Shown here piece by piece: positions 2,422 through 49,400 of a DNA stretch of 64,000 nt. The DNA is from Owenia fusiformis (lineage: Eukaryota; Annelida; Polychaeta; Sabellida; Oweniidae). The translations under genes and the position numbers were made by a program. The DNA is taken from contig CAIIXF020000003.1 of NCBI GenBank assembly GCA_903813345.2, forward strand, positions 10,742,931 through 10,806,930. Reading direction: 5' to 3'. Positions within the stretch are counted from its first letter, which is position 1; every line of letters begins with the position of its first letter. The notes beneath the pieces are model-generated. The model was given only the letters and a program-made list of their open reading frames with translations. It made no database searches and was not told the DNA's origin.

Positions 2422-3985
2422 GGCTTTGTATAAAAAACCTCCTACCCACGTACCCTCGTACCCACGTACGTGGGTCCTGACCCAGTCTTTAAAGAGTTAA
2501 ATTTTTAAATGTTTAAAACATTATTCAATCTCAGTTTATCCTGAATTATAGATGAATTTATGCATCCATATGCCTTTATTTATAGGTCTGACATCTCTCT
2601 AGTAAAATAAAATAAAGCCGGAATTGCATAAATGTTCATTATTTTTGAGCTATTTGATTTATGTTTTTGATATGTCGAAATGTTTTTTGTTGATCGGGCA
2701 GTCTTACCTGTATAACACATCAGTGCTGATTAGCAATCTCCTAGCCTTCGTTCAGTGCAATCCGTGCCTCCTGTTACCTCATGCAGATTGTAAATGTCCC
2801 GGGAAGTTTACCCTTGTCCAAAAGTTGACATCTTTTTAAAAATATATTTCTTAGAGTTTCCAACCAATTAAATTCACCACATTTTATTAGATGTTTATTT
2901 CAAATGTTATTAGAATTCATTCTTACGAATATTATACGTTATTAACGTATGTTAGTCAAAGATTTGGTGTCTTTGTTGTCCATTGTATTCACGTTTTACG
3001 CGCAAAAAGCTAGAAACTACAAAGCTGAACTTATATCATTCAAACCAGTTTTACATCAAATCATTGTCAAAATAAAACTCTACTCTTCATATTACCTAAT
3101 TATGGATCAAACGGCCATGAATAATGTCGAAGTTTACAAAACCAAACTTACACTCCCCTGCATAAGTTTGGCAACTCTAACTTTTAATTCCATCTAAATG
3201 ATTCACTGAACTAGTGCGCACAATTATCCTTAAATTGTGCCAAAAAGCGATTAAAAACGAATATAGCGAATCCTTCTACTTTTCAAATATTTCGTTATTC
3301 AATTGCGCCACGGTTAAACAGAAATGCAGCCTTTATTATTCCTTGAGATCGTGTGAATTGATCACTCTATCACTTTGTATCTCCAATTCTGATGTTAAAT
3401 TAAATAAAAGACATAAGACAAATTACACGTATAGTTCAAATCTGTCGTGCAAACAATGAATACTTGTAATATCGTTTGAAAGAATAAAAAGTATATGTGA
3501 TAAAAATCGAAACTACAGGGTGTTAAAAAACAGGACCGATGAAAAGTTGAATAACTTCGTCAATCCAGAATCATTCAGGTCATTCAATGTGAATTTTGTT
3601 GTGAAAGTTTGACCATATTCTGCTCATGGAGTCAAAAACTACAGCACTTTACAACACATGCCCCATGTGGCCAATTTGCGCCAAGCAATAGATTGGTTGT
3701 ACACTGCAAGACTGCCCGATCAACAAAAAATCGCTTCGATATATCAAAAACAACACTCAAATAGCTCAAATGAACATTATGCAATGCCGGCTTTATTTTA
3801 TGACGAGACAGATGTCCGATCTAGAAATAAAGGCATATGGGTACATAAATTCATCCATAATTAAGCATACATTGAGATAGAATAATGTTTAAAAAATGTT
3901 AAAGATTTAACTCTTTAAAGACTGGGCCAGGACCCACGTACGTGGGTACGAGGGTACGTGGGTAGGAGGTTTTTTATACAAAGCC
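2422..3985. mobile_element. 1.56 kb foldback TIR element with 9-bp target duplication
   Basis: The ends are perfect inverted repeats (GGCTTTGTATAAAAAACC at 2422-2439, its complement at 3968-3985). The arms continue with moderate divergence for about 300 bp, to roughly 2725 and 3680. The arms carry short CGTACCCACGTACGTGGGT-like palindromes. Nine bases CAGTCTATA (2413-2421 and 3986-3994) flank it directly. A 9-bp duplication is typical of Mutator-like elements (family knowledge). The 2949-3459 core has only short ORFs that I do not recognise, so it is probably non-autonomous. Confidence 0.8.
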
Positions 3986-25400: not shown

Positions 25401-28400
25401 ATTTTTTACCACATCGGTCCATATGCGACTTAACTCAAACGTTAAAATTCAACGTTGTCGAAACAGATTGAAACAGATTGAAAATCTGGAGTCTATTGCT
25501 TTTGCCAGGATTCTTCTTCTTATTCTTCCACGCAAGTTTTCTCGCTAAATAGAAGAGCTTACTTTAAATGGCTTACATGGTTAGTTGAGGTGTGTGTCTT
25601 GGATCATGAGAAATTAGGTCAAATTTTTATCTAGATCAAAGGTCAAGAACTAGGTCAAATCTTACATTTTCAACATTTTGTCATACATTCACAAAATAAT
25701 TAAAACAAAATCGCTCTGTGATTAAATTAAAAACGAACAAGGTGAATGATGGATATTGAAATGAGAGAGTTTATTTCCAATAACTCCAAATGTCCCTATA
25801 CATGTTTTTCACTCTTCAGAGATGTAACATCCAGTTTTTACTGAGTTACAAAGTTCATTTTTCTGAAATACATGAATTTGTATAAATTTCTCCACTTTAA
25901 AGACATATTACTCCCCCTTCGTTCACTCCCCCATTCAATTTTAATTATTTTTTGACTATTTTTAATCGAACATATGGATAAATCAGCAATGATATTAACT
26001 TTGTGATAATAAAGTAACTTATACGAGTACGTATTTATTACAGGAAGTGAATTAGTTCCTTGATTCATAGCAAAAACACTGACTTTTTCACATTGGTGCA
26101 CATTTCACATTTTCACACTTCTGCATATCTTAGAAGTGTATCAGTTCAAAAAATCCTATAACTAGCATATTCTACCATTCCATGCACCTATTCATTTACC
26201 AAACCAGTAGTAGACTTTCTCTTGAAAAAATAAATATTCCATTTGTTGAATTCTCTAGCAGTAATCTGCTACTCCCCCCCCCATTCATTTTTTCTGCAGT
26301 ACAAATATGTACTGAAAAATGCTCCTTTCAGTACAAATGTGCTCCCCTAGTGAATGTTTGTGTATGTGTTCATGCGTGAAATAAATACTCCAATGGCCTC
26401 ATCACAATTCTCTTGCATAAAATCTAACATTGGAATGGTGGCAGTCTGTTGTTGAAAAGTAGCAGCATGGGGTCAACCCAGTTGTCCGAAACCCAGTTCT
26501 CCGAAACCCAGTTCTCCGAAACCCAGTTTTCCGAAACCCAGTTCTCCGAAACCCAGTTCTCCGAAAATAAGGGGATCTTATTTGAAAAATACAATTTTTT
26601 TTAACGAATCTCGTTGTCGCAACCTCTGCGAATCACAACATAACATTGGAATAACGTTGACATCATTGCAAAATTAGGCTAAATATGCTAAGTCAAGACG
26701 TTAATTGTTTAATGTTAAGCCTACGAAAGTTCATATACAGGTGATATAGATGTTCAAACAAACAAAGTTAAATTATGTTATTCTCATTGTAAAATGGCGT
26801 TTACACAACATACATAGATAGGGGTCTACAATTTTTAAACCAATTTTCTTTATGGCCCATGGGCCTTTTTTGAGAGGGAACAACATTTTTCCAATGGGTG
26901 ATGAGCGTTAATAAAAGGAAAAATAGCTTTCCCAAGCCAGTGGGCATTTATTTAGTAAGTATTTAGTTATGTACATCTTTTGAAACCAAAACTTATTCTT
27001 CATTTACGTACTCTGTTCGAGAAATAGAGATTAAATTAAAAGGATGAAGTGAGCACATGGCGAAAATGAAACTTCTTGCAGCGAATGGGAGAACATCCAT
27101 TTTGATACGAGGACAGCCTGCCGTCGTTTCCAGTTTATCCCAAGTGATTAAGTTATAAATGTTTTGTTCTTTTACGATTTGATAAAATACAGAGACTAAG
27201 AAATTAAATGCGACGAAATATTTTGACAACGTAATATGTATACTGTTTTATTCTTAAAGTACTATATGCGTAAACTTATTTTATCTGTTTCAAAATGATT
27301 CATTTTATTTTGCCTATATAAAAGAGATTGAAGAAGATAAGATAAACTGTTCCGTAATATATATTGTGTTTTGATAACCTTTTTTTAGAATCACAATGTA
27401 AAATAAATCCCCCGTTCCTGCCATTCTGGTAACGCGTGCAATGGATGCAATTTAAAGTGAGAGAGAGAGATCTATGAACATCAGAATGCGTCCATGCCAT
27501 TAATTTGGCCAAATACATGGCATGAAACTGGCCTAAGCTTAGTACGTCTCCCCTTTCTCTGGTAAATTATGACTATATTTTTCGGAGTAATGGGTTTCGG
27601 ACAATTGGGTTTCGGACAAGTGGGTTTCGGACAACTGGGTTTCGGAGAACTGGGTTTCGGACAACTGGGTTTCGGAAAACTGGGGTGCACCCTAGCAGCA
27701 TACATGTAGCTATTCCACCAGGTTTTTCATCGATTTCAGCATCAATACATGCCAATGTAAACACAAGGCAAAATCAGCAAATAATTAATCACAAGATTAT
27801 TTTCAATAAAGATCATAATATTTCACATCTTACTTTGCTCCATGAAGAGAGTAACCACTGCAACTTTGGACACTTTCCAAGATAGCAGCTTTGTGTGGTG
27901 ACAGGTTTAGGTATGTAGAGACACATGTTGTCAGTTAATGAAGTAACACCATTCACACCAACACTACGACATACAACATCACGTTTTTTCTTCCCACTAC
28001 CACAGCTTGCTGAACACTGAAAAAATATTTTTTATCTCTTTTGATGAATTAATCCGATTGATTATCACCAGGATCACTGTCACTAACAGTTATCATAGGA
28101 AATCATATCAAAACATACAATCATGTTGACAAAATAGTCATAGATGTATTCTCAAAAGATGATGTATCACTCATAAAATATAAGCAAAATCATTCTTTTC
28201 TTTTCCAGTTGTATCAAAGAATATGTATAATGGCCTCCATTTTCCAAAATTGCCTTTTTATTGAGCAAACTGAGACACATGTCGCATGCTTCCATACAAA
28301 TATCAACATGATGAAATAAATAAATTGAACTGTAATTAAAAATAGTTCTTTTTGAGTAAAATGGCTGTCAATTTCAAAATGGCAGCCTGACCAAAGAATC

Positions 28401-34400: not shown

Positions 34401-37400
34401 TTGAAATTTTTTAATCATCAAATATTCCACCATACATTTCAAAAAATATTATCTTTTTAATTAACACCTATGCAAAGATTGAGCAAAGGACACACTATTT
34501 CAATAATAAAATGCCATATCTAATTAATGTGCCACTTCAATGTTTTAGCATATCAAAAATATTGATGACTCACTCAGGTGGCAAAAAAAATTTGAAAAAT
34601 ATGAAATTTTTTTCAATGTCAATCTTTTCTAAATATGCTCAACTTTAAAATGAAATCAATGCTGATTGTCTAACCAGGTTAAAAGGAAGAATATATTATG
34701 TTTTAGATATTACTGTACCATTGGTTTCTATGAGAACTAACATTTTGAAACCTCTAAAAGTTAGTTATAAAGAAACTCACTATTTTCGAACAAAAAGTCC
34801 TTCAAAAACCATTTTTTGAAATTAAAATAAAGAGTTTCACATATCAGACTTTGATAACATTGGGTAAGACTACAATACAAGCCAAAATGGTTTAAACTTA
34901 ATATGGGGACTTTAAAGATGCTGTATTAGAAAATAGGCATGGTTATAAAGATGGCCACTGCTCTGGAGATGGCATAACTTTTTCATTTCTAACCAAAGTC
35001 CACATTAATGGCAAATTATGTAAATAAGTGTGGTTTATGAAAGTCAACACTTAAGCTCCTCCCACCATGCAGAGACAGAGCGCTGGCCAGCTTAAGATAC
35101 TTGCAAGTGAAACTAAATCTGTTAACTGAACACCGCCCCCTTCATTCGTTTCGGTGCCTTGGGTGGTAACTTCGAGCACAAATTTTTTACATAAACATCA
35201 AGGTCTAACATCCTTATTATACACTGACATGTTTCTCAGAGCACTAATCGTTGTTATTATGGACATTTAACAAGAAAACATAAATGATTGACAAAGAAAT
35301 GATGGATTGAATAATTGTGATTAATTTCATAATTTTACCCCTTACTGATGAAGGGGTTGATATTTCAATTTGCAACAAGCAAACATCCGCAAGTAGGCTA
35401 GATCCTTAAAGCTGACACTCTCAGCTTTCCAATGGTGTATTAGAACTTTTGCTTAAATGGCATCATTCTTTTTTCATTAAGGAGTGTACTTTGAGGCTCT
35501 ACTTTGCTCAAGTATATATGGTTGAAGCATGAATGAATAAATGCAAGGGGCTCACACTTTTCAATAACATAGATGCCTTAATATCTGACTGTATTAGAGC
35601 ATTATAAGGTGGAGCTCTGAAACAGGCTTTCTATAGCTTTCTTTCTTTTAGGTGCCTTTTGCTGTCTAGACAAAGTTTGCCTAGATTTAAGATATTGAAG
35701 GTCAAAAAGGTATTTTTCAACTTAAACATATAACAAGCTATTCAGTAAAAGTTGTGACTGATACAGTTTGTAAACTTTGTTAACTCTTTTGTCCAATTGA
35801 TATCAAGGTGGTTGGTCACAATTATAACCAAAGAACAATTCAACTGAATCCAATCCCCTTTGGAATGGTATGGAACCACATCTCAACCTATCGGTATTAG
35901 TCATAAGTAAACTCAATATCATGCATCAATGAATATTTTAAATTGTAATATAAATCCTTGACTGTTCGGCAACCAAGCTTAGAATGATTTTTACTCACTC
36001 TCTTAAAGGCGCAATCATACAAAACCTCATTACACATATTAAGAAAACATTCATATTCTCAACTGAATGATTTAGTACCTGGCTGGGCAGGGCTGTTCAT
36101 TACATGGGAACAATCCTGTTATTGGCTTATCTTTCTTGGCACAAAATTTGTCTTCCATTTCATCTGCATAATCTCTGAGGCACTTGGCTGAGGTGACCTG
36201 TGTACCTATAAGTATACACGAATGTCATTAATCGCTGAGGTACTTACATGTAGCTGGTGTCACCATTGTTCTTGTAAGTATATAATGATGTCAATAATAT
36301 CAGAAACATTTACATGTAGCTGGTGTCACCATTGCTCTTGTAAGTATATAATAATGATGTCAATAATCTCAGAAGCATTTACATGTAGCTGGTGTCACCC
36401 ATGCTCTTGTAAGTATATAAAGATGTCAATAATCTCAGAAGCATTTACATGTAGCTGGTGTAACCCATGCTCTTGTTAGTATATAATGATGTCAACCAGA
36501 ACAACGGCAACGCCAAAGCGTAGCGAATCCCATCAAACAGCCATGGATGGCATTTTTACAAACAAAGTATATAGCAAAAATGGCAGCCATTTTTCAAAAT
36601 GGCCGCCTTCTACCAAAAGTGTCATTAGACCATGTGCCATGCTTATAGTATTCACATACCAAATATGAACAAAATCGCTCTACTACTTTTCAAGTTATAG
36701 TAAAATATGTTAAAATGGCGGCCATTTTTCAAAATGGCCACCTTCTACCAAAAGTGCCATTAGACAGTGTGCCGTGCTTATAGTATTCACATACCAAATA
36801 TGAACAAAATCGCTTCACTACTTTTCGAGTTATAGTAAAATACGTTAAAATGGCGGCCATTTTTCTACCAAAAGTGTCATAGGACAGTGTGTCATGCTTA
36901 TAGTATTCACATACCAAATATGAACAAAATCGCTCCACTACTTTTCGAGTTATAGTAAAATATGTTAAAATGGTGGCCATTTTTCAAAATGGCGGCCATT
37001 TTGAAAAATGGCCGCCTTCTACCAAAAGTGTCTTTAAGCAGTGTGCAATGTTTATAGTATTCACATACCAAATATGAACAAAATCGCTCCACTACTTTTC
37101 AAGTTACAGCAAAAATCGTAAAATAACTAGTAAAGTCCGCCATTTTTCAAGATGGCTGCCATGTGCTTCTTTAATATCTACATTCCTAGCTTTATTAATG
37201 TCCTATATAATTTTTTTACATCTCAAACATATTGCTATTACAGTTTTACATATTGCACCTAAATTACTGTAAATTTGGCACTAAAATGGCCGCCATTTTG
37301 AAATGAGTGGCCATTTTGAAAATAGGCTTTTGAGCAGAACTTCTACCCCCATAGGGTATATGTGTACAAAATATGAACAAAATCGGGCCAACGGTATTTG

Positions 37401-40400
37401 AGTTATTGCCCGGACGGACGGACGGATGTACGGACGTACGTATGGACGGACGGACGGACGGACGGAGGCGTTCCCTATATCCCTCCGAACTTCGTTCGAT
37501 GGGATAATAATCTCAGAAGCATTTACATGTAGCTGGTGTCACCATTGCTCTTGTAAGTATATAAAGATGTCAATAATCTCTGAGGCATTTACATGTAGCT
37601 GGTGTAACCCATGCTCTTGTAAGTATATAATGATGTCAATAATCTCAGAAGCATTTACATGTAGCTGGTGTCACCATTGCTCTTGTAAGTATATGATGAC
37701 GTCAATAATCTCAGAAGCATTTACATGTAGCTGGTGTCACCCATGCTCTTGTAAGTATATAATGATGTTTATAATCACAGAAGCATTTACATGTAGCTGG
37801 TGTCACCCATGCTCTCATAAGTATATAATGATGTCAATATTCTCAGAAGGATTTACATGTAGCTGGTGTCACCAATGCTCTTGTAAGTATATAATAATGA
37901 TGTCAATAATCTCAGAAGCATTTACATGTAGCTGGTGTCACCATTGCTCTTGTAAGTATATAATAATGATGTCAATAATCTCAGAAGCATTTACATGTAG
38001 CTGGTGTCACCATTGCTCTTGTAAGTATATAATGATGTCAATAATCTCTGAGGCACTTACATATAGCTGGTGTCACCAATGCTCTTGTAAGTATATAATG
38101 ATGTCAATAATCTCTGAGGCACTTACATGTGCTGGTGTCACCAATGCTCTTGTAAGTATATAATGATGTCAATAATCTCTGAGGCACTTACATGTAGCTG
38201 GTGTCACCCATGCCCTTGTAAGTACACCGTTTGACAAAATAAAAATGACACCCACCCACACAATGTTTCATAAATATTTGTCTGAAGAAGTTCAGACTTG
38301 ATTTTTGCACATTAAAACTCCATTTTGCAATTTTAAGTTTCAGATGACTAGCTCACCTAGATGCACATTTTTATGCACAATTGGATCTTGCACAAAAAAT
38401 GACACCCCTTTTGTAAAATAATTTTGGAAATAAGTTATAATGATTTTATCAATGACAACTTCATTATTTTGTGTTTAATGGAATGGACTTCATTTTCCTG
38501 AAAGTACAAGTCAAAATCATTAGTAATTAAAAACTTATGTTTGAAAAACTGAGTTGCATTTTCTGTGCAGAATCCATGTGCAAAGGAATGAAAATTTTGT
38601 AATGCTCAAAAAATTTGACCAACTTGAGCTACACATCTAAAATATTTGGAGGTGCCTTCGCATTATGTCTTCTTTGAATGTGTGAAAGGACAAGTCTATA
38701 TGTCAATAAATAAACAAATTATGCAATGTTAGGTGGGTGTCATTTTTTGTGTCACCCTGGATAAAATGATGTCAATAATCTCAGAAGTACTTACGGGTAA
38801 TTGGTGTCAACCATGCTTTTGCAAGATATAATGATGTCAATAATCTCAGAAGTACTTACACGAAGCTAGTGTCACCCATGCTTTTGTAAGTATATAATGA
38901 TGTCAATAATCTCAGAAGCATTTACATGTAGCTGGTGTAACCCATGCTCTAGTAAGTATATAAAGATGTCAATAATATCTGAGGCATTTACATGTAGCTG
39001 GTGTCACTCATGCTCTTGTAAGGATATAATGATGTCAATAATCTCAGAAGCATTTACATGTAGCTGGTGTAACCCATGCTCTTGTAAGTATATAATGATG
39101 TCAATAATCTCAGAAGTACTTACATGTAGCTGGTGCCACCCATGCTTTTGTAAGTATATAATGATGTCAATAATCTCAGAAGGACTAAGATGTAGCTGGT
39201 GGCACCCATGCTCTAATATATACAGGGTGAGCCAAAAAAGTAACCGAAACAAATGTTAATTATTCTGTCATCCAGCATGGATTTAAATCATATTTGGCAC
39301 AAGTGAACCTTGTTTAATATTCTTGCATTCTGTACAAGTTCCATTAGTCACGATCTTATGGTCATTTTAAAAAACATGCTAAAAATACAGAAACATGCCA
39401 AAATCACTTTTATCTTTGGAGCTATATTTACAACTCTAGAATTTGATTGGTTCATTGAAACTGTTTCTGTCATGCTAATATCACCTGTGAAGAGAATGTG
39501 AGACACCTACCTCCAGCACATGTGACAGAACATTGTGATGTCACAGCACTCCATGTGTAGTTATGAGGCAGATCAACTGTCATTGCATTTATTTTAGGCA
39601 TCGTGTATTCATAGTAAATCCCTGGATTGTATCCCTGCATCAGCACCTGGAACAACAGACCAGCAATGACCTGAACTTGTAAGTATAATGTCACACCTCA
39701 ATTACTCCCCTGAAGCCCAATGGCATTGACTTTTCTCTTCCCTCTTAAAGAAACAGGTTTTTTCTTCTGAGGACAGGCCCTAATATATCATTTAGGGGCG
39801 TCAGAAGGAATTGCCAAGAGGGGAGCAACTTTTGGGTATGAAGCGCGCTTCACGTGATGCATGCTGCGCAATCTAGGGGGATCGGGGGGAGGCATGGCTC
39901 TGGTGCATTCTGAATATATCTCAGCACAAAATTCCCAAACAATAAAAACAAGAAAAAAATGTGATTTTAGAAAACTTCAACTTCAACTTCTTCAAAGTAT
40001 TTACATACTGTATGGGTTCCTGAGAAACTATACATGGCATAGAATTAAATGTAATATGAGAAATGCAGGGGCGTAGCCAGCTTTCAGGGCTTTCAGTCAG
40101 CGGGAGGTGCGATCACCAAAAAAAATTGAAAATCAGTCAAGGGGGTGCGATTTATCTTGAATTTTACAAAAGTTGATGTAACTTCCTTCAAAATTGAGCT
40201 GGAAGCTTCAAATAAAAAGCATTTTAAAGCTAATTTCTTTTTCTATCTAATGAGATCTCCTATGCTTGAAGTATAGACTGGATAAAGTATCATTTCTGTC
40301 ATTATTACACTTTGACTTTAATTAGCTATAGTGAATCCTATTGAACGAAACACATTTTGAAAATTTCTACTTGAACAGAGCACATCAGCATATTCAATTT

Positions 40401-43400
40401 GAACCAAATCTGTTCACTGGTATTTGAGTTATCAAAGATAGTCATTTTGAAATTCAGCCATCATCTTGAAAAGCATTTCATGAACAGAGTTACTATGTCC
40501 CTAGGCATCAGCATATAAAATTTGAACCAATCCGTTCACTGGTTTTTGGGTTATTATCAAAGATAACGTTTCTTTACAAAATTGGTGGCCATTTTGAAAA
40601 TCAGTCACGATCTTGAAAATTCTAGTGTGTCTCTAGGCATCAGTACATAAAATTTGAACAAAATCCATCAACTTGAATTTGAATTATCAAAGATTATATT
40701 TCTTTTGAGTTATCGCCTGGACACAAGGACAGATGGAAAGACGAAAGGATGGAGAGATGAAGGGACGGCTTTCCAATATCCCCCTCAAACTTCATTTGGT
40801 GGGATAATACATTCAATTTGAGAGCAAACTAGCAGTTAACCTACCTCAACAATCAATTGTTCATCTATTGGTCCAGGTGATTTGATCATTTCTGGCTGCT
40901 TATGTGGCCGTTTATATTCAAACTTTGCTCCTGCAAACATGAACTTCCCAGGCCAGGTGACCCTCCAATGTCCAGTAAGGTAATATGCACCATGATCATT
41001 CTTTATGGCTAGATAATTTGGTGAGATTTTTGTTTCTGAGATTTTTAAGCTTCTCGCCCCCTTTGGAATCTTCACTATCTCATGGTAATCTGGAACACAT
41101 ACATATCTGGTGAGATATTTTTTATTTTTCCACAGATAATGCTTACAATTAAATGCCACATTGATTTGCAGGGTGGGCCAAAAAGTGTCCATAACTTTAA
41201 TTTTGAAATAATTAACTGCATATATTTCAAAAATATTTCTGATTGAGATGTATTGTAATTGTTCTCAAAATAGGAAAAAAATCTTCAGGGGTTTGGGAAT
41301 AATATAGGTGAACAAATACTGGAGATCTAAGTGAAAATAAACAGTTGTCAAAAAGCAGCAATTTAACACTGATATTAGTCATATCTCAAAGAATACCAGT
41401 CTGTCAGAGAATAACATGTGGTGAGGAGTTCAGCACTGTCTGAGCTTATTTCCTGATAAAAAATGGAATATTAGAAGTATCATAATAATTAAGATGGAGA
41501 AAAGCTAATTCAGCACCGAGAAAAAGGGTGATTGGGAAAATCTGCCTGGACAATTCAAACTATTCTGAGATGTTATCTGTGGTAAGAACTAGGAGCTCTT
41601 ATGAATCAGAAGGTGAGTTAGGTGCAAACAAATTACATCATTTGTTTTTCAATGATCCCTTTTGCTAATATTCGCTGCATATGCAAAAATATTTCTAATA
41701 ATCTAGCTGTTGCTGTTACCGAAAATGTTGTATCAACAAATCAGATTTTTTCTCAATAAAAGTCCTTAAGAAATGCAAGTGAACACTACTAACAATTTAC
41801 AACCTAATAGACCAGGTATGTTATGGCAATTAGTAAAAGATGTGACTGTCTAAAGTCATTTGCCATACCCTACCTTGTCCAAGCAAACTAACATTTTACA
41901 TTTTGTATATTGTATATGTTATGTAAACTTGAATTAATTTTAAGCACACAAACAGAATTCAACATGAAACCCTCCAATTCACGTTAATAAAAGTACATGT
42001 ACTTAATATTAAGAGATAAAATCAATTAAAGTTCTATAGAACAGAATATAATACTGCTCTTTCATCACATCATCCAAGCATACAGTTGCTATATCTTGGA
42101 AATTGTACAATGTAAAATTTAGAAATAATAACAAATGAAATACGTCATGTATGTCATGTATATAAATGTGCTGTCAAAATTGACAAAGACATGGACATTG
42201 ATAAAGATACCAGTCAAAAATGTGAGAAAAAAGTGAACAATAAATATAATACAAATTACCTAAAAACTAGAAATAAGCAACTCAGCGAAGTAGTAAATCC
42301 CAATAAACAAATTATTTATGAGTATGAAATATAATTCTTCAGCATAATTCAGCCATAGTGACATATAAAATCTACTAAATATTGAGAATTCTCATATGAG
42401 GTGACCCTTTTGGATTTTCCGAAGTACTGTACATTTAAGATGAATGATACAATACATGTAATTGTGATCTACTCAATAAAATATATTCAATTCAAGTATA
42501 ATAGCCATACATTGAAGAGATCTCTATGACTAGATAATAACATCAACGCCAAAACGTAGCAAATCTAATCCAACAGCCATGGCTGCCATTTTTACAAAAT
42601 CCCTTACTACTTTTTCAGTTTCCTTCTACAACTTTTACAGTTTCAGCAAAAATCGTAAAATAACACACATAAAAATGGCCACCATTTTCAAATTGGTTAC
42701 TCATTATTCAAATTGTCATTAAAAAGTGTAATATTCTTCTGGCAAAATTTCCCAAAAAATCGCACACACGTGTAAATGGCAGCCATTCAAAACAGCCATT
42801 CAAAATGGCCACCTGTTAGCCAAAGCCAAAGTGTGCCACGCTTATATGAGTATTCACATATCAAATATGAACAAAATCGCTCTATTACTTTTTGAGTTAT
42901 AGCATGGGCTCTCTTGAAAGCTCATGGTTATTGTAAAAAAACAGATGTACAGACGTACAGAGGAATTCCCTATATTTCTCTGAATTTCGTTTGATGGGAT
43001 AATTACTGAAAATTCTAGCAATGGGTGGCCATTTTGGATTTTATTGAGGCTTGAATATGAACTACATTACAATATTGAAGTCATACTTTCAGAGTGATCT
43101 CAAAATTAATTTTTTTTTTTTTTTATAATTTTTTTTATAAATTCCTGTTTTCTTGATCGCCATACATCCCTGAACCGCATATGAAGAAAAGTATTCAACT
43201 TATTATCCAGACAGTTGAACCGCCTGAAGAATGAACTATCAGATTGACAGACTAATAAATGGAGGGCTACTGTATCCCTACTGAACTTTGTTTGTTGGGA
43301 TAATGATGTTGCTTAGTGATAGAATAAACGTCATATGTTTTTCTTAAAATTAAGATTCATATCAAGACAAATACATATTAAATGGTGTTTCTTTTTCTAG

Positions 43401-46400: not shown

Positions 46401-49400
46401 TGACATTCTTTGACCTTGAAAATGTCACTGAAGGTCAAATCTTAAATATAAAGTCAGATTTGAACTTCTGACAACATGTAGATGATTTTGAAAAAAAGTG
46501 AAGTCAGTCTAAACAGTATTTGTCAAGTTATTGGAACTTGTTTTAATAATTTGTTGCAGACACCAACCACCGATCACCAACCACCGTCACAAAAGAACAG
46601 AGACCATAATTCAATATGTCACTACTTTTTGTAATCTGGTATCTGAGTTATTGCCCAGACAAATAAAGGAAAGGACAGATGAATGGATGGACAGTCGAAC
46701 GGACAGACACCTTTTTCTATATATTTATCCCTACAAACTTTGTTGGGTGTGATAATATTCTAAAGAGGCTGAAATATTGTTTTCATGCACTTACCATGCA
46801 AAGGCCATCAACACATACATTAGAAGACCCCTGTTGACACCTAGTACCATCCACAACCTTGTTGGACAAGGCAAAGTAGAAGTCATAGCCCTCAGCTTTA
46901 CAGTATAGACGACAGAAATCATCCTCTGAAAGAATTAGGAACACTGAGAGAATAGGCCAGAAGGTAAGTTTCATTAACACAAACATTGTGGCATCTCTCC
47001 AATACAGTAGTATCTAAATAACTCGATAATATACATGTGGATAAGGCCAAGTAGCAGAATTCAAACAGTTATATCTGGGTTTTCGTAAAACACAGACCGC
47101 CGACCACCGACCACCGACCAGTCACTCTCCACAATTGGGTACATGTGGTCGGTGGTCGGCTGACGGTCTTTTACATAAGGATGAAAAATGCAAAATTAGA
47201 AGTAAAACTAAAACTGGGAATCCAATGACTATAAAACCTTTACTAGGTCGTGATTTAAAAACGTATAATTATCATTTCAAATCACGATGAAAACGTTACA
47301 TCGTCGTGGTGTGTAATGTCATATTTTTAAGTGATGTTTCAGTTGTTAGAAGACCAATTTCATCCTGGTTAGTCACTTTGGAAAAAAACGCACGTAACAT
47401 TGCATTAAGTTCATTCTTCATTCATATGAAACGCAATAACAAAAACACACAAACATCGTCGATGTTGACGTCGTAACGTTATGTTTGATTTCTCAGTTGT
47501 TAAACGTCAACTGGTAAAAACTACATTTGATATGACAAAAAAAGCTTTCTAATGGTGTACTGAAATGGTAAGTCACTTTTAATCCCGATAAGAGAACGCA
47601 TGTAACATTATATCGTGTTCAGTATTCAGGCTATGATGATAACAAATCATTTTTGTTTCGAAATTGTTAAATTTCAGTAAAAAATTAGGATAGATTCCCG
47701 TAGAAACGATAGGTTGGTTAATGATAGGTTAGGACCTAAGGCAGGACAATTAATCGAGAGGAGACAGTCATGACCAATTTGTTTGCTTGCCATTCGTTGC
47801 AAGGTACAAAATCGGTAAAAAACGTTGCCTAGTCCAACGATTGACATTCAAAATCAAATTATTAAAATTCTAAGGCTACAAATATGTTCGGTCTTTTACA
47901 TGATATGGTCGGTCTTTTACACATTTTCTTCAAACCCTGTTTTGAGGCTACCAGTGGAAAACACCGACCGGTCGGTGGTCGGTGGGGTCGGTCTTTTCCG
48001 AAAACCCGTTATATCTTGGATTATGACTATTTTCTGACCATGAAGACAGGCATATCTTTTAGAACCATTCATAATCTCAAAGAGAGGTATATATAATGAT
48101 AGTCAATTGATATTGAGGGTGCAATCAACCCATCAACATCCTTGAATTTTCAATGATGTTGACCTCATTTTCACTAAAAAGGCACACCCTATATTGTTTG
48201 ATAAATATTAGCCATGCCTGACTGAACTACCACAATAAAGTCCCAAGCATTATGTTCACCAGTTCATATTTTTAGAATGTAACAGACAATTCTGTTCTTA
48301 GGTCAAACTCACTAAATTCAATACAAAAGAGCAACCATGGGATGAATAGGATATCCTATGATTTCCTCTGGCTATCATTTTTATCTACTCATGGATATCG
48401 CGCATCTCCATTCATTCGCTGCGCTATTTTGTGGAGATGGACGATATCTTCTCATGGATGAAAATGGTATCCCTCAAAAACCATAGGATATCCTCTATTT
48501 ATCCTACACTTAGTGAACTAAATGTATGATATAAAAACATTAAAAAAGATTTGATATCTAATATTGGCAAAATGAATAACTTCAGGAAATCGCCACAATA
48601 TACTCTGGAAAACCAATACTCCGCTTGTTGATTTCCAAAAATTTATTTTTCAATGATATTCTACATTTAGTATGCCAATTGAAGAATAATATGAACACCC
48701 TATGATTTTTCCAGAATATCACTTTTTATCCCATGGTTGCAAGGATATAGATCGAATATTCCATGCAGATATTTTGGATATGTGGATCAAGGTATCATAT
48801 TTTAGCAAAGAATTCTCAAACCATTGAATATCACTTTTAAACTATCAAATATCACTTCTTAAAAAGTGATATTCGATGGTTTCAAAAGTGATATTCGATG
48901 GTATTAAAAGAAATATTCAATGGTGTCACATAGTTCACTCATAAAACTAAATTAAGCATTTCAAAACAATATTCTCTGAATTCCATGGATATCGCTTTTT
49001 TTCCATGCATTTGCAAAATATCATAAATATATTTGCATGTTATCCTTCAGATTTGCCCTCAACTATGGGATTACTTAGTATATCCTATTAAAGTTGTAAT
49101 AAAACCATTTTACTCAATTTAGATATGTTTATGCCATCTTACTGTATGAAGGCCACACTTTACGATGGTGAACCATCAACAACTCCAAAAGTTCATTTTA
49201 TCATGATATCGGATATATAAAGTCATCATGTGTGCATGTGCGGCAAAACTGATTTCATTTTCAGAGCAGAAATTTTGTTCTCATCAATTTTGCGGAGGAT
49301 ATAATATCACTTGCATTTGAGTGCGGAATCAATCTAGTTGAAACATGCTATTGAAACCATGTAAGTTATATAACAGCAAGCATTGCTAGTGTTTGCGGAT

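What the first reader, a model, noticed from the sequence alone, without database searches (positions are those of the whole stretch)
36180..39215. A minisatellite made from the splice junction of the exon beside it fills an intron
Seen: read on the minus strand, each 66-bp unit aligns along its whole length with the end of the intron and the first 45 bases of the TSR2 exon at 36205. Shared blocks are TATACTTA, GGT(C/G)AC(C/A)(T/C)CAG and AAGTGCCTCAGAGATTAT (the KCLRDY codons). About 22 units, plus two inserted elements, make up 36211-39215 of the 3.3 kb intron 36206-39510. Inference: the array began by tandem duplication of the 3' splice site plus exon start and then drove intron growth. Each unit keeps splice-like words, including a GTAAGT on the minus strand in units with GGCACTTACATG, so the array may hold decoy sites or pseudo-microexons.
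Basis: partly seen in the sequence, partly recalled or inferred. Interest (0 to 1): 0.75.

Follow-up and report, generated by a model that had tools for sequence, protein, structure and literature searches.

The report
Minisatellite copied from a splice junction
A block of 22 short repeats filling an intron of an ADAMTS-type gene descends from the junction between that intron and the next exon; the same kind of structure is known from lancelet genes as a "mirage", and it turns up in at least two more genes of this different, probably annelid, genome.

Summary
A profile of eight 66-bp units finds 22 units (36226-39219, minus strand) and, as hit 23, the intron/exon junction 36219-36168 (16.2 bits, E 4.8e-4), in register and abutting the first unit. 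The next hit scores 4.9 bits; shuffles reach at most 10.6. No other copy of the array was found in the 498-Mb assembly. The exon half is TSP1_ADAMTS sequence of normal length, so the exon is the source.

This is a "mirage", a minisatellite-like tandem duplication of an intron-exon boundary described in lancelet genes. New here: the genome has 12 large contigs and an annelid haemoglobin-linker domain, so probably is not a lancelet. Two further genes carry mirages: L012 (110-bp units, intact acceptors) and L040 (three extra acceptor copies, plus a 123-bp array starting at its donor).

The decoy/pseudo-microexon idea is weak at this locus. No AG lying wholly in the array resembles a real acceptor, and GTAAGT (7 of 22 units) includes bases the exon lacks. 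Yet the real acceptor also scores badly. Decoys that look functional are at L012. No RNA data were available.

The parts
36079..36205 (-). Exon coding the second half of a thrombospondin type 1 repeat; its first ~40 bases are the exon part of the array's founder sequence. Both ends inferred from splice words and reading frame
   Evidence: TSP1_ADAMTS E 1.8e-8, profile 7-55 aligned to residues 9-57 of the joined TSR; open frame 36224-36075; sequence
36166..36225 (-). Junction unit: last 20 bases of the intron plus first 40 of the exon, in register with the array
   Evidence: nhmmer 16.2 bits, E 4.8e-4; shuffles; alignment
36226..36495 (-). Array block 1: four units
36496..37504 (.). Inserted dispersed repeat (element 1), ends approximate; splits the array
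   Evidence: 4373 first-look candidates in the genome, 40 scored; other copies up to 97% identical
37505..38224 (-). Array block 2: eleven units, including the three most exon-like (38039, 38105, 38170)
38225..38765 (.). Inserted dispersed repeat (element 2) with roughly inverted CAGGGTG-type ends, perhaps a MITE-like element at a TA site; ends approximate
   Evidence: 381 first-look candidates in the genome, 40 scored; ends read by eye; the class name is recalled
38766..39219 (-). Array block 3: seven units, the last truncated
39220..39510 (-). Intron remainder without units, up to the inferred 5' splice site (GAG|GTAGGT)
   Evidence: sequence; U1 duplex -9.9 kcal/mol
39511..39620 (-). Upstream exon with the first half of the same TSR (WSAVTSQCSVTCAGG); its own start is approximate

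Best explanation
A short stretch spanning the 3' splice junction of a TSR exon was tandemly duplicated (inferred: replication slippage or unequal exchange). Copies accumulated on the intron side, because any array that pushed into the exon would break the protein (inferred). The last copy is still the intron end and exon start (shown by homology and register; use in splicing inferred from the protein). The other copies drifted, gained about six bases, and were partly homogenised (shown: 11% divergence between units, 32% to the junction). Two dispersed repeats later inserted into the array (shown as interruptions; timing inferred). It has no evident function beyond enlarging the intron. It is a boundary-seeded intron minisatellite, a 'mirage'.
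For: The junction is the best non-array hit in 64 kb (16.2 bits, next 4.9), in register, same strand, adjacent; null maxima 10.2 and 10.6 bits. The joined TSR fits its model at equal length, so the exon start is ancestral. Exon-like states persist in a minority of units: full 18-base block in 3 of 22, parts of it in others. The array was found only here: 19 pattern hits, all in this array, 0 in the reversed-pattern control; 11 DNA hits, all here. Similar structures occur in the same genome: L012 (copies 90-94% identical to the junction region) and L040 (three extra acceptor-junction copies at 94, 89 and 83%). Published lancelet mirages have the same layout, with 3' intron end plus 5' exon part in BflGb6.
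Against: Identity to the junction is modest (44/60 best), and one 18-base block carries much of it: the rest of those units is 26/42, and plain blastn sees only that block. That would also fit a short conversion tract from the exon. No orthologous intron could be examined, so polarity rests on the domain model. The real acceptor at 36206 scores -4.7 in my small matrix, so the exact splice site lacks transcript proof and its weakness is unexplained.
Confidence: 0.86

Rival explanations
1. The array came first from unrelated intron sequence, and a short tract was later exchanged between exon start and some units (gene conversion), giving the 18-base identity.
For: The 18 identical bases lie in three adjacent units in mid-array (38039-38224), while the rest of the junction is 26/42 identical in the two complete ones; a plain blastn search sees only that block.
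Against: The profile hit spans 52 bases including intron sequence, in register with the array and abutting it; 14 of 20 intron positions match most complete units. A conversion tract needs no register or adjacency. L012 and L040 show whole-junction copies.
Confidence: 0.08
2. The array predates the exon boundary and the exon start was made from an array unit (exonisation of the last unit).
For: The exon start and the last unit are continuous, and the acceptor is weak.
Against: The first codons of the exon fit the TSR profile with normal spacing, including the conserved cysteine. A related TSR exon in L040 covers profile positions 15-55, i.e. starts at about the same place.
Confidence: 0.04
3. 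The array is a regulated set of decoy splice sites or pseudo-microexons (poison acceptors).
For: GTAAGT in 7 of 22 units, U1 duplex -5.0 kcal/mol, like donors at L040 and L004. The acceptor-like AGs of 17 of the 22 units were tested; all 17 would lead to a stop codon before the real exon.
Against: AGs wholly in the array score 0.6 or less against 6.4-14.5 for the 20 training acceptors; the intron's real donor scores -9.9. Lancelet mirages are reported not to disturb splicing.
Confidence: 0.05

Closest known systems
Lancelet 'mirages' (Adh, globins BflGb6 and BflGb9, TnC; similar duplications in PGBD5); PMC3087553 and PMC3902484, passages read
   Same: Tandem duplication of an intron-exon boundary next to the authentic exon; BflGb6 repeats the 3' intron end plus 5' part of exon 2; units contain splice-like words; boundary units escape homogenisation
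   Different: A different, probably annelid, genome. 22 units here against 6 and 3 in the two BflGb6 haplotypes; units 59-76% identical to the junction here, where BflGb6 units are 81-100% alike; interrupted by two dispersed repeats
Human G1P3/IFI6 minisatellite with multiple splice donors (Turri 1995: only the title seen, in a reference list; PMC4526556: passages)
   Same: Minisatellite that carries splice-site sequence at an exon boundary
   Different: Donor side, and used as alternative donors; here the acceptor side, with no evidence of use
Internal tandem repeats at exon-intron boundaries in human segmental duplications (PMC2812944, passages read)
   Same: Minisatellite expansion at exon-intron boundaries changes intron structure
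   Different: There tied to new introns and variable paralogues; here an existing intron is enlarged

Membership tests
mirage (boundary minisatellite) | Tandem units contain sequence of both sides of an intron-exon boundary | tested here: met
   Up to 14 of 20 intron and 30 of 40 exon positions match; 16.2 bits against shuffle maxima of 10.2 and 10.6
mirage (boundary minisatellite) | Array lies beside the authentic boundary, same strand, in register | tested here: met
   Junction envelope 36225-36167 abuts unit 36226-36291
mirage (boundary minisatellite) | Units more alike to each other than to the boundary copy | tested here: met
   Mean divergence 0.108 between units, 0.325 to the junction
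mirage (boundary minisatellite) | Regular splicing is kept | not testable with these tools
   No RNA data
mirage (boundary minisatellite) | Copy-number instability between haplotypes or somatic cells | not testable with these tools
   Only one locus found in the assembly
dispersed minisatellite or transposon-borne satellite | Same unit at other genomic sites | tested here: not met
   19 of 19 pattern hits and 11 of 11 DNA hits lie in this array (searches not exhaustive); the inserted elements, by contrast, have many copies
decoy acceptor array | Units keep acceptors as good as the real one | tested here: inconclusive
   AGs wholly in the array score at most 0.6, but the real acceptor itself scores -4.7; at L012 the copies score 9.5-11.4 against 8.9 for the real site, at L040 5.7-8.0 against 5.6

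The most novel reading that the evidence does not exclude
Boundary-seeded minisatellites are a recurrent, continuing route of intron growth in this lineage, arisen independently of lancelets. L012, L040 and the target form an age series in which copied acceptors start intact and then decay, so one genome shows how introns lengthen and how decoy acceptors are lost.
Probability: 0.4. Interest if true: 0.65.

Novelty: new member of a known kind. Interest (0 to 1): 0.45.

Why it matters
Mirages have been described in lancelets, discussed as perhaps a general phenomenon of cephalochordates, and proposed as a source of new introns. Finding them at exons of three different genes in another, probably annelid, genome suggests a general by-product of minisatellite birth in short introns. 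It makes intron growth testable case by case. L012, with five upstream acceptors scoring as well as the real one, is a natural test of how the spliceosome picks among near-identical acceptors.

Tried and rejected
Organism: a COX1 search found no match, so no mitochondrial gene order could be used; the genome-size phrase search found no paper. Twelve contigs of 31.9-62.2 Mb hold about 477 of 498 Mb, and the linker domain Eryth_link_C has three hits over cut-off. Owenia fusiformis, with 12 chromosomes (PMC9539403, passages), fits but is not proven. The lancelet chromosome number (19) and the annelid restriction of the linker domain are recalled.

Unit finding: a fuzzy word matched everywhere, and a stricter anchor found 16 units; the profile found 22.

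Surveys: 37 exon pieces (30 TSR loci plus 7 pieces of the window's gene) gave self-hits at E 1e-3 for 4: L012, L004, L029 and the target. L029 is 24 bases, which I take as TSR-to-TSR similarity. L004 is one extra, decayed donor-side copy (35 bases, 86%; sequence). The target's query included unit 1, so repeats it with the junction alone. Control: 41 of 1086 cross-contig pairs had a flank hit at E 1e-3; only 15 were printed, the best at E 4.6e-6, and I did not trace their causes, so weak self-hits mean little (L029 is in that range; L004 has 4.2e-7, the target and L012 far lower). L040 was found through an array near L003, not by this scan, so it must not be counted in that rate. Of 30 p450 loci one had a self-hit (L055, a 123-bp duplication at the coding start); six match as nearly one whole exon, so fewer introns were tested. 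Of 22 fn3 loci nine had self-hits at E 1e-5, which I read as fn3-to-fn3 similarity; none of 22 had a tandem array at the boundary, and 15 of the 22 lie on one contig. Prevalence is therefore not estimated.

Acceptor matrix: only 20 sites, scored on themselves, one (L001) doubtful. L005 and L011 were first given the wrong orientation and corrected.

The L040 donor-side array shares only three exon bases (TGA) with the exon, so it begins at the donor but is not clearly copied from exon sequence.

Resemblance of exon-like units to the upstream donor (GTAGGTGTCTCA) was noticed by eye but not reported by the profile search; dropped as chance.

Literature searches. Among the papers listed (lists were capped) I saw no mirage so named outside lancelets; I read passages of five papers only. 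The library holds open-licence papers only, and the original lancelet Adh paper is not held.

Full report
What is there. The window carries an ADAMTS-type gene on the minus strand: a spacer domain in the open frame 40839-41264 (ADAMTS_spacer1, E 4e-23), a cysteine-rich piece at 46786-47013 that matches ADAMTS models below their cut-offs, and several thrombospondin type 1 repeats. One TSR is split by the intron 39510-36206: the upstream exon ends WSAVTSQCSVTCAGG, the downstream exon reads TQVTSAKCLRDYADEMEDKFCAKKDKPITGLFPCNEQPCPA. Joined, they match TSP1_ADAMTS over residues 9-57 against profile 7-55, equal lengths (E 1.8e-8). This fixes the splice position on protein grounds; no transcript was available.

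The array. A profile built from eight units finds 22 units on the minus strand from 36226 to 39219, and as its 23rd hit the intron/exon junction, 36219-36168, 16.2 bits, E 4.8e-4. The junction abuts the first unit, on the same strand and in register. The seven other hits up to E 10 have E 1.6 or more and at most 4.9 bits. In 100 dinucleotide shuffles of the rest of the window the best score was 10.2 bits, and in 20,000 shuffles of the junction 10.6.

Anatomy. The junction part is about 60 bases, 20 of intron and 40 of exon; units have about six more bases (TACATG) in the exon half. The most junction-like complete units are U13 and U14 (44 of 60); three units share all of AAGTGCCTCAGAGATTAT with the exon. 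Units differ from each other by 10.8% on average and from the junction by 32.5%. By my coordinates the intron is 3305 bases: about 1444 of array, about 1550 of two inserted repeats, 291 of other sequence at the donor end and 20 at the acceptor. Without array and insertions it would be about 300 bases. Both inserts are dispersed repeats: element 1 had 4373 first-look candidates (40 scored), other copies up to 97% identical; element 2 had 381 (40 scored). The array itself was found nowhere else: 19 pattern matches, all here, none for the reversed pattern, and 11 DNA matches, all here; these searches are not exhaustive.

Direction. The exon start is ordinary TSR coding sequence of normal spacing, so it does not derive from the array. 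Exon-like states (GTGCCTCAG and parts of it) survive as minority variants among units, as expected of an ancestral state being replaced. I infer tandem duplication of the junction, growth on the intron side, drift and partial homogenisation. A seed falling on a boundary needs no special targeting if the intron was only about 300 bases long; that is an argument, not a test.

Decoys. Acceptors were scored with a matrix of 20 TSR acceptors from this genome. The best AG wholly inside the array scores 0.6 against 6.4-14.5 for the training sites. Better AGs in the intron lie in the two elements and the donor-end remainder; one of them (38757, 5.6) sits at the end of element 2 with array sequence as its upstream tract. 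Gene-sense GTAAGT occurs in 7 of 22 units; U1 pairing is -5.0 kcal/mol against -9.9 for the real donor, though two other donors in this genome also give about -5. I tested the acceptor-like AGs of 17 of the 22 units; all 17 would meet a stop before the real exon. The idea of pseudo-microexons is thus weak here. Against my own test, the real acceptor scores -4.7, which I cannot explain; the matrix may be too narrow.

Recurrence. Two other genes on contig C10 show the same kind of structure. In L012 a 110-bp array (897-1542, 5.9 copies) runs into a TSR exon; units contain the intron end with an intact acceptor and about 33 bases of exon, 90-94% identical to the junction region; the five upstream acceptors score 9.5-11.4 against 8.9 for the real one and all five would lead to a stop before the real exon. 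In L040, read in gene sense, an exon that covers TSP1_ADAMTS positions 15-55, so starts at about the same TSR position as the target exon, has three upstream copies of its acceptor junction at 94, 89 and 83% identity, decreasing with distance; their acceptors score 5.7-8.0 against 5.6 for the real one, and all three would meet a stop first. On its other side a 123-bp array of 10.3 copies begins at its donor, TGA|GTAAGT, with only those three exon bases repeated. L004 has one decayed donor-side copy. Surveys of 37 exon pieces from TSR loci and the window's gene, 30 p450 loci and 22 fn3 loci show that such arrays are not at every exon; the samples are small and not independent, so I give no rate.

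Comparison. [quoted passage not shown] RT-PCR suggested normal splicing, and boundary units escape homogenisation (PMC3087553, passages read). TnC is a further case, and PGBD5 has similar, imperfect duplications (PMC3902484, passage read). The present array meets the sequence features of that kind. The genome is not obviously a lancelet: 12 contigs hold about 477 of 498 Mb, and an annelid haemoglobin-linker domain is present (its restriction to annelids is recalled); lancelets have 19 chromosomes (recalled). Owenia fusiformis has 12 chromosomes and is a candidate only. Among the papers that my searches listed I saw no mirage so named outside lancelets, but the library is incomplete, and human boundary minisatellites are known.

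Verdict. Observation confirmed; origin from the junction well supported; decoy function not supported at this locus. A known kind of structure, in a lineage where I found no report of it, with several cases in one genome.

Noticed in passing
L012 897-1542: Array of 110-bp units running into a TSR exon, five upstream copies with acceptors scoring as well as the real one
   Followed up: yes
L040 (gene sense) 1626-2384 and 2449-3727: One TSR exon with acceptor-junction copies on one side and a 123-bp array beginning at its donor on the other
   Followed up: yes
L004 1706-1825: Donor junction with one decayed copy 84 bases downstream
   Followed up: partly
L055 2440-2643: 123-bp duplication at the coding start of a p450 gene; by eye each copy has an acceptor-like word and a start codon
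   Followed up: partly
window 36206: The inferred real acceptor TATACTTATAG scores far below other TSR acceptors of the genome
   Followed up: no
window 26475-26566 and 27580-27684: Two 15-bp arrays, by eye roughly inverted relative to each other, about 1 kb apart; may be the ends of a mobile element
   Followed up: no
window 59501-59876: Five 98%-matching 75-bp repeats; no link to an exon was tested
   Followed up: no
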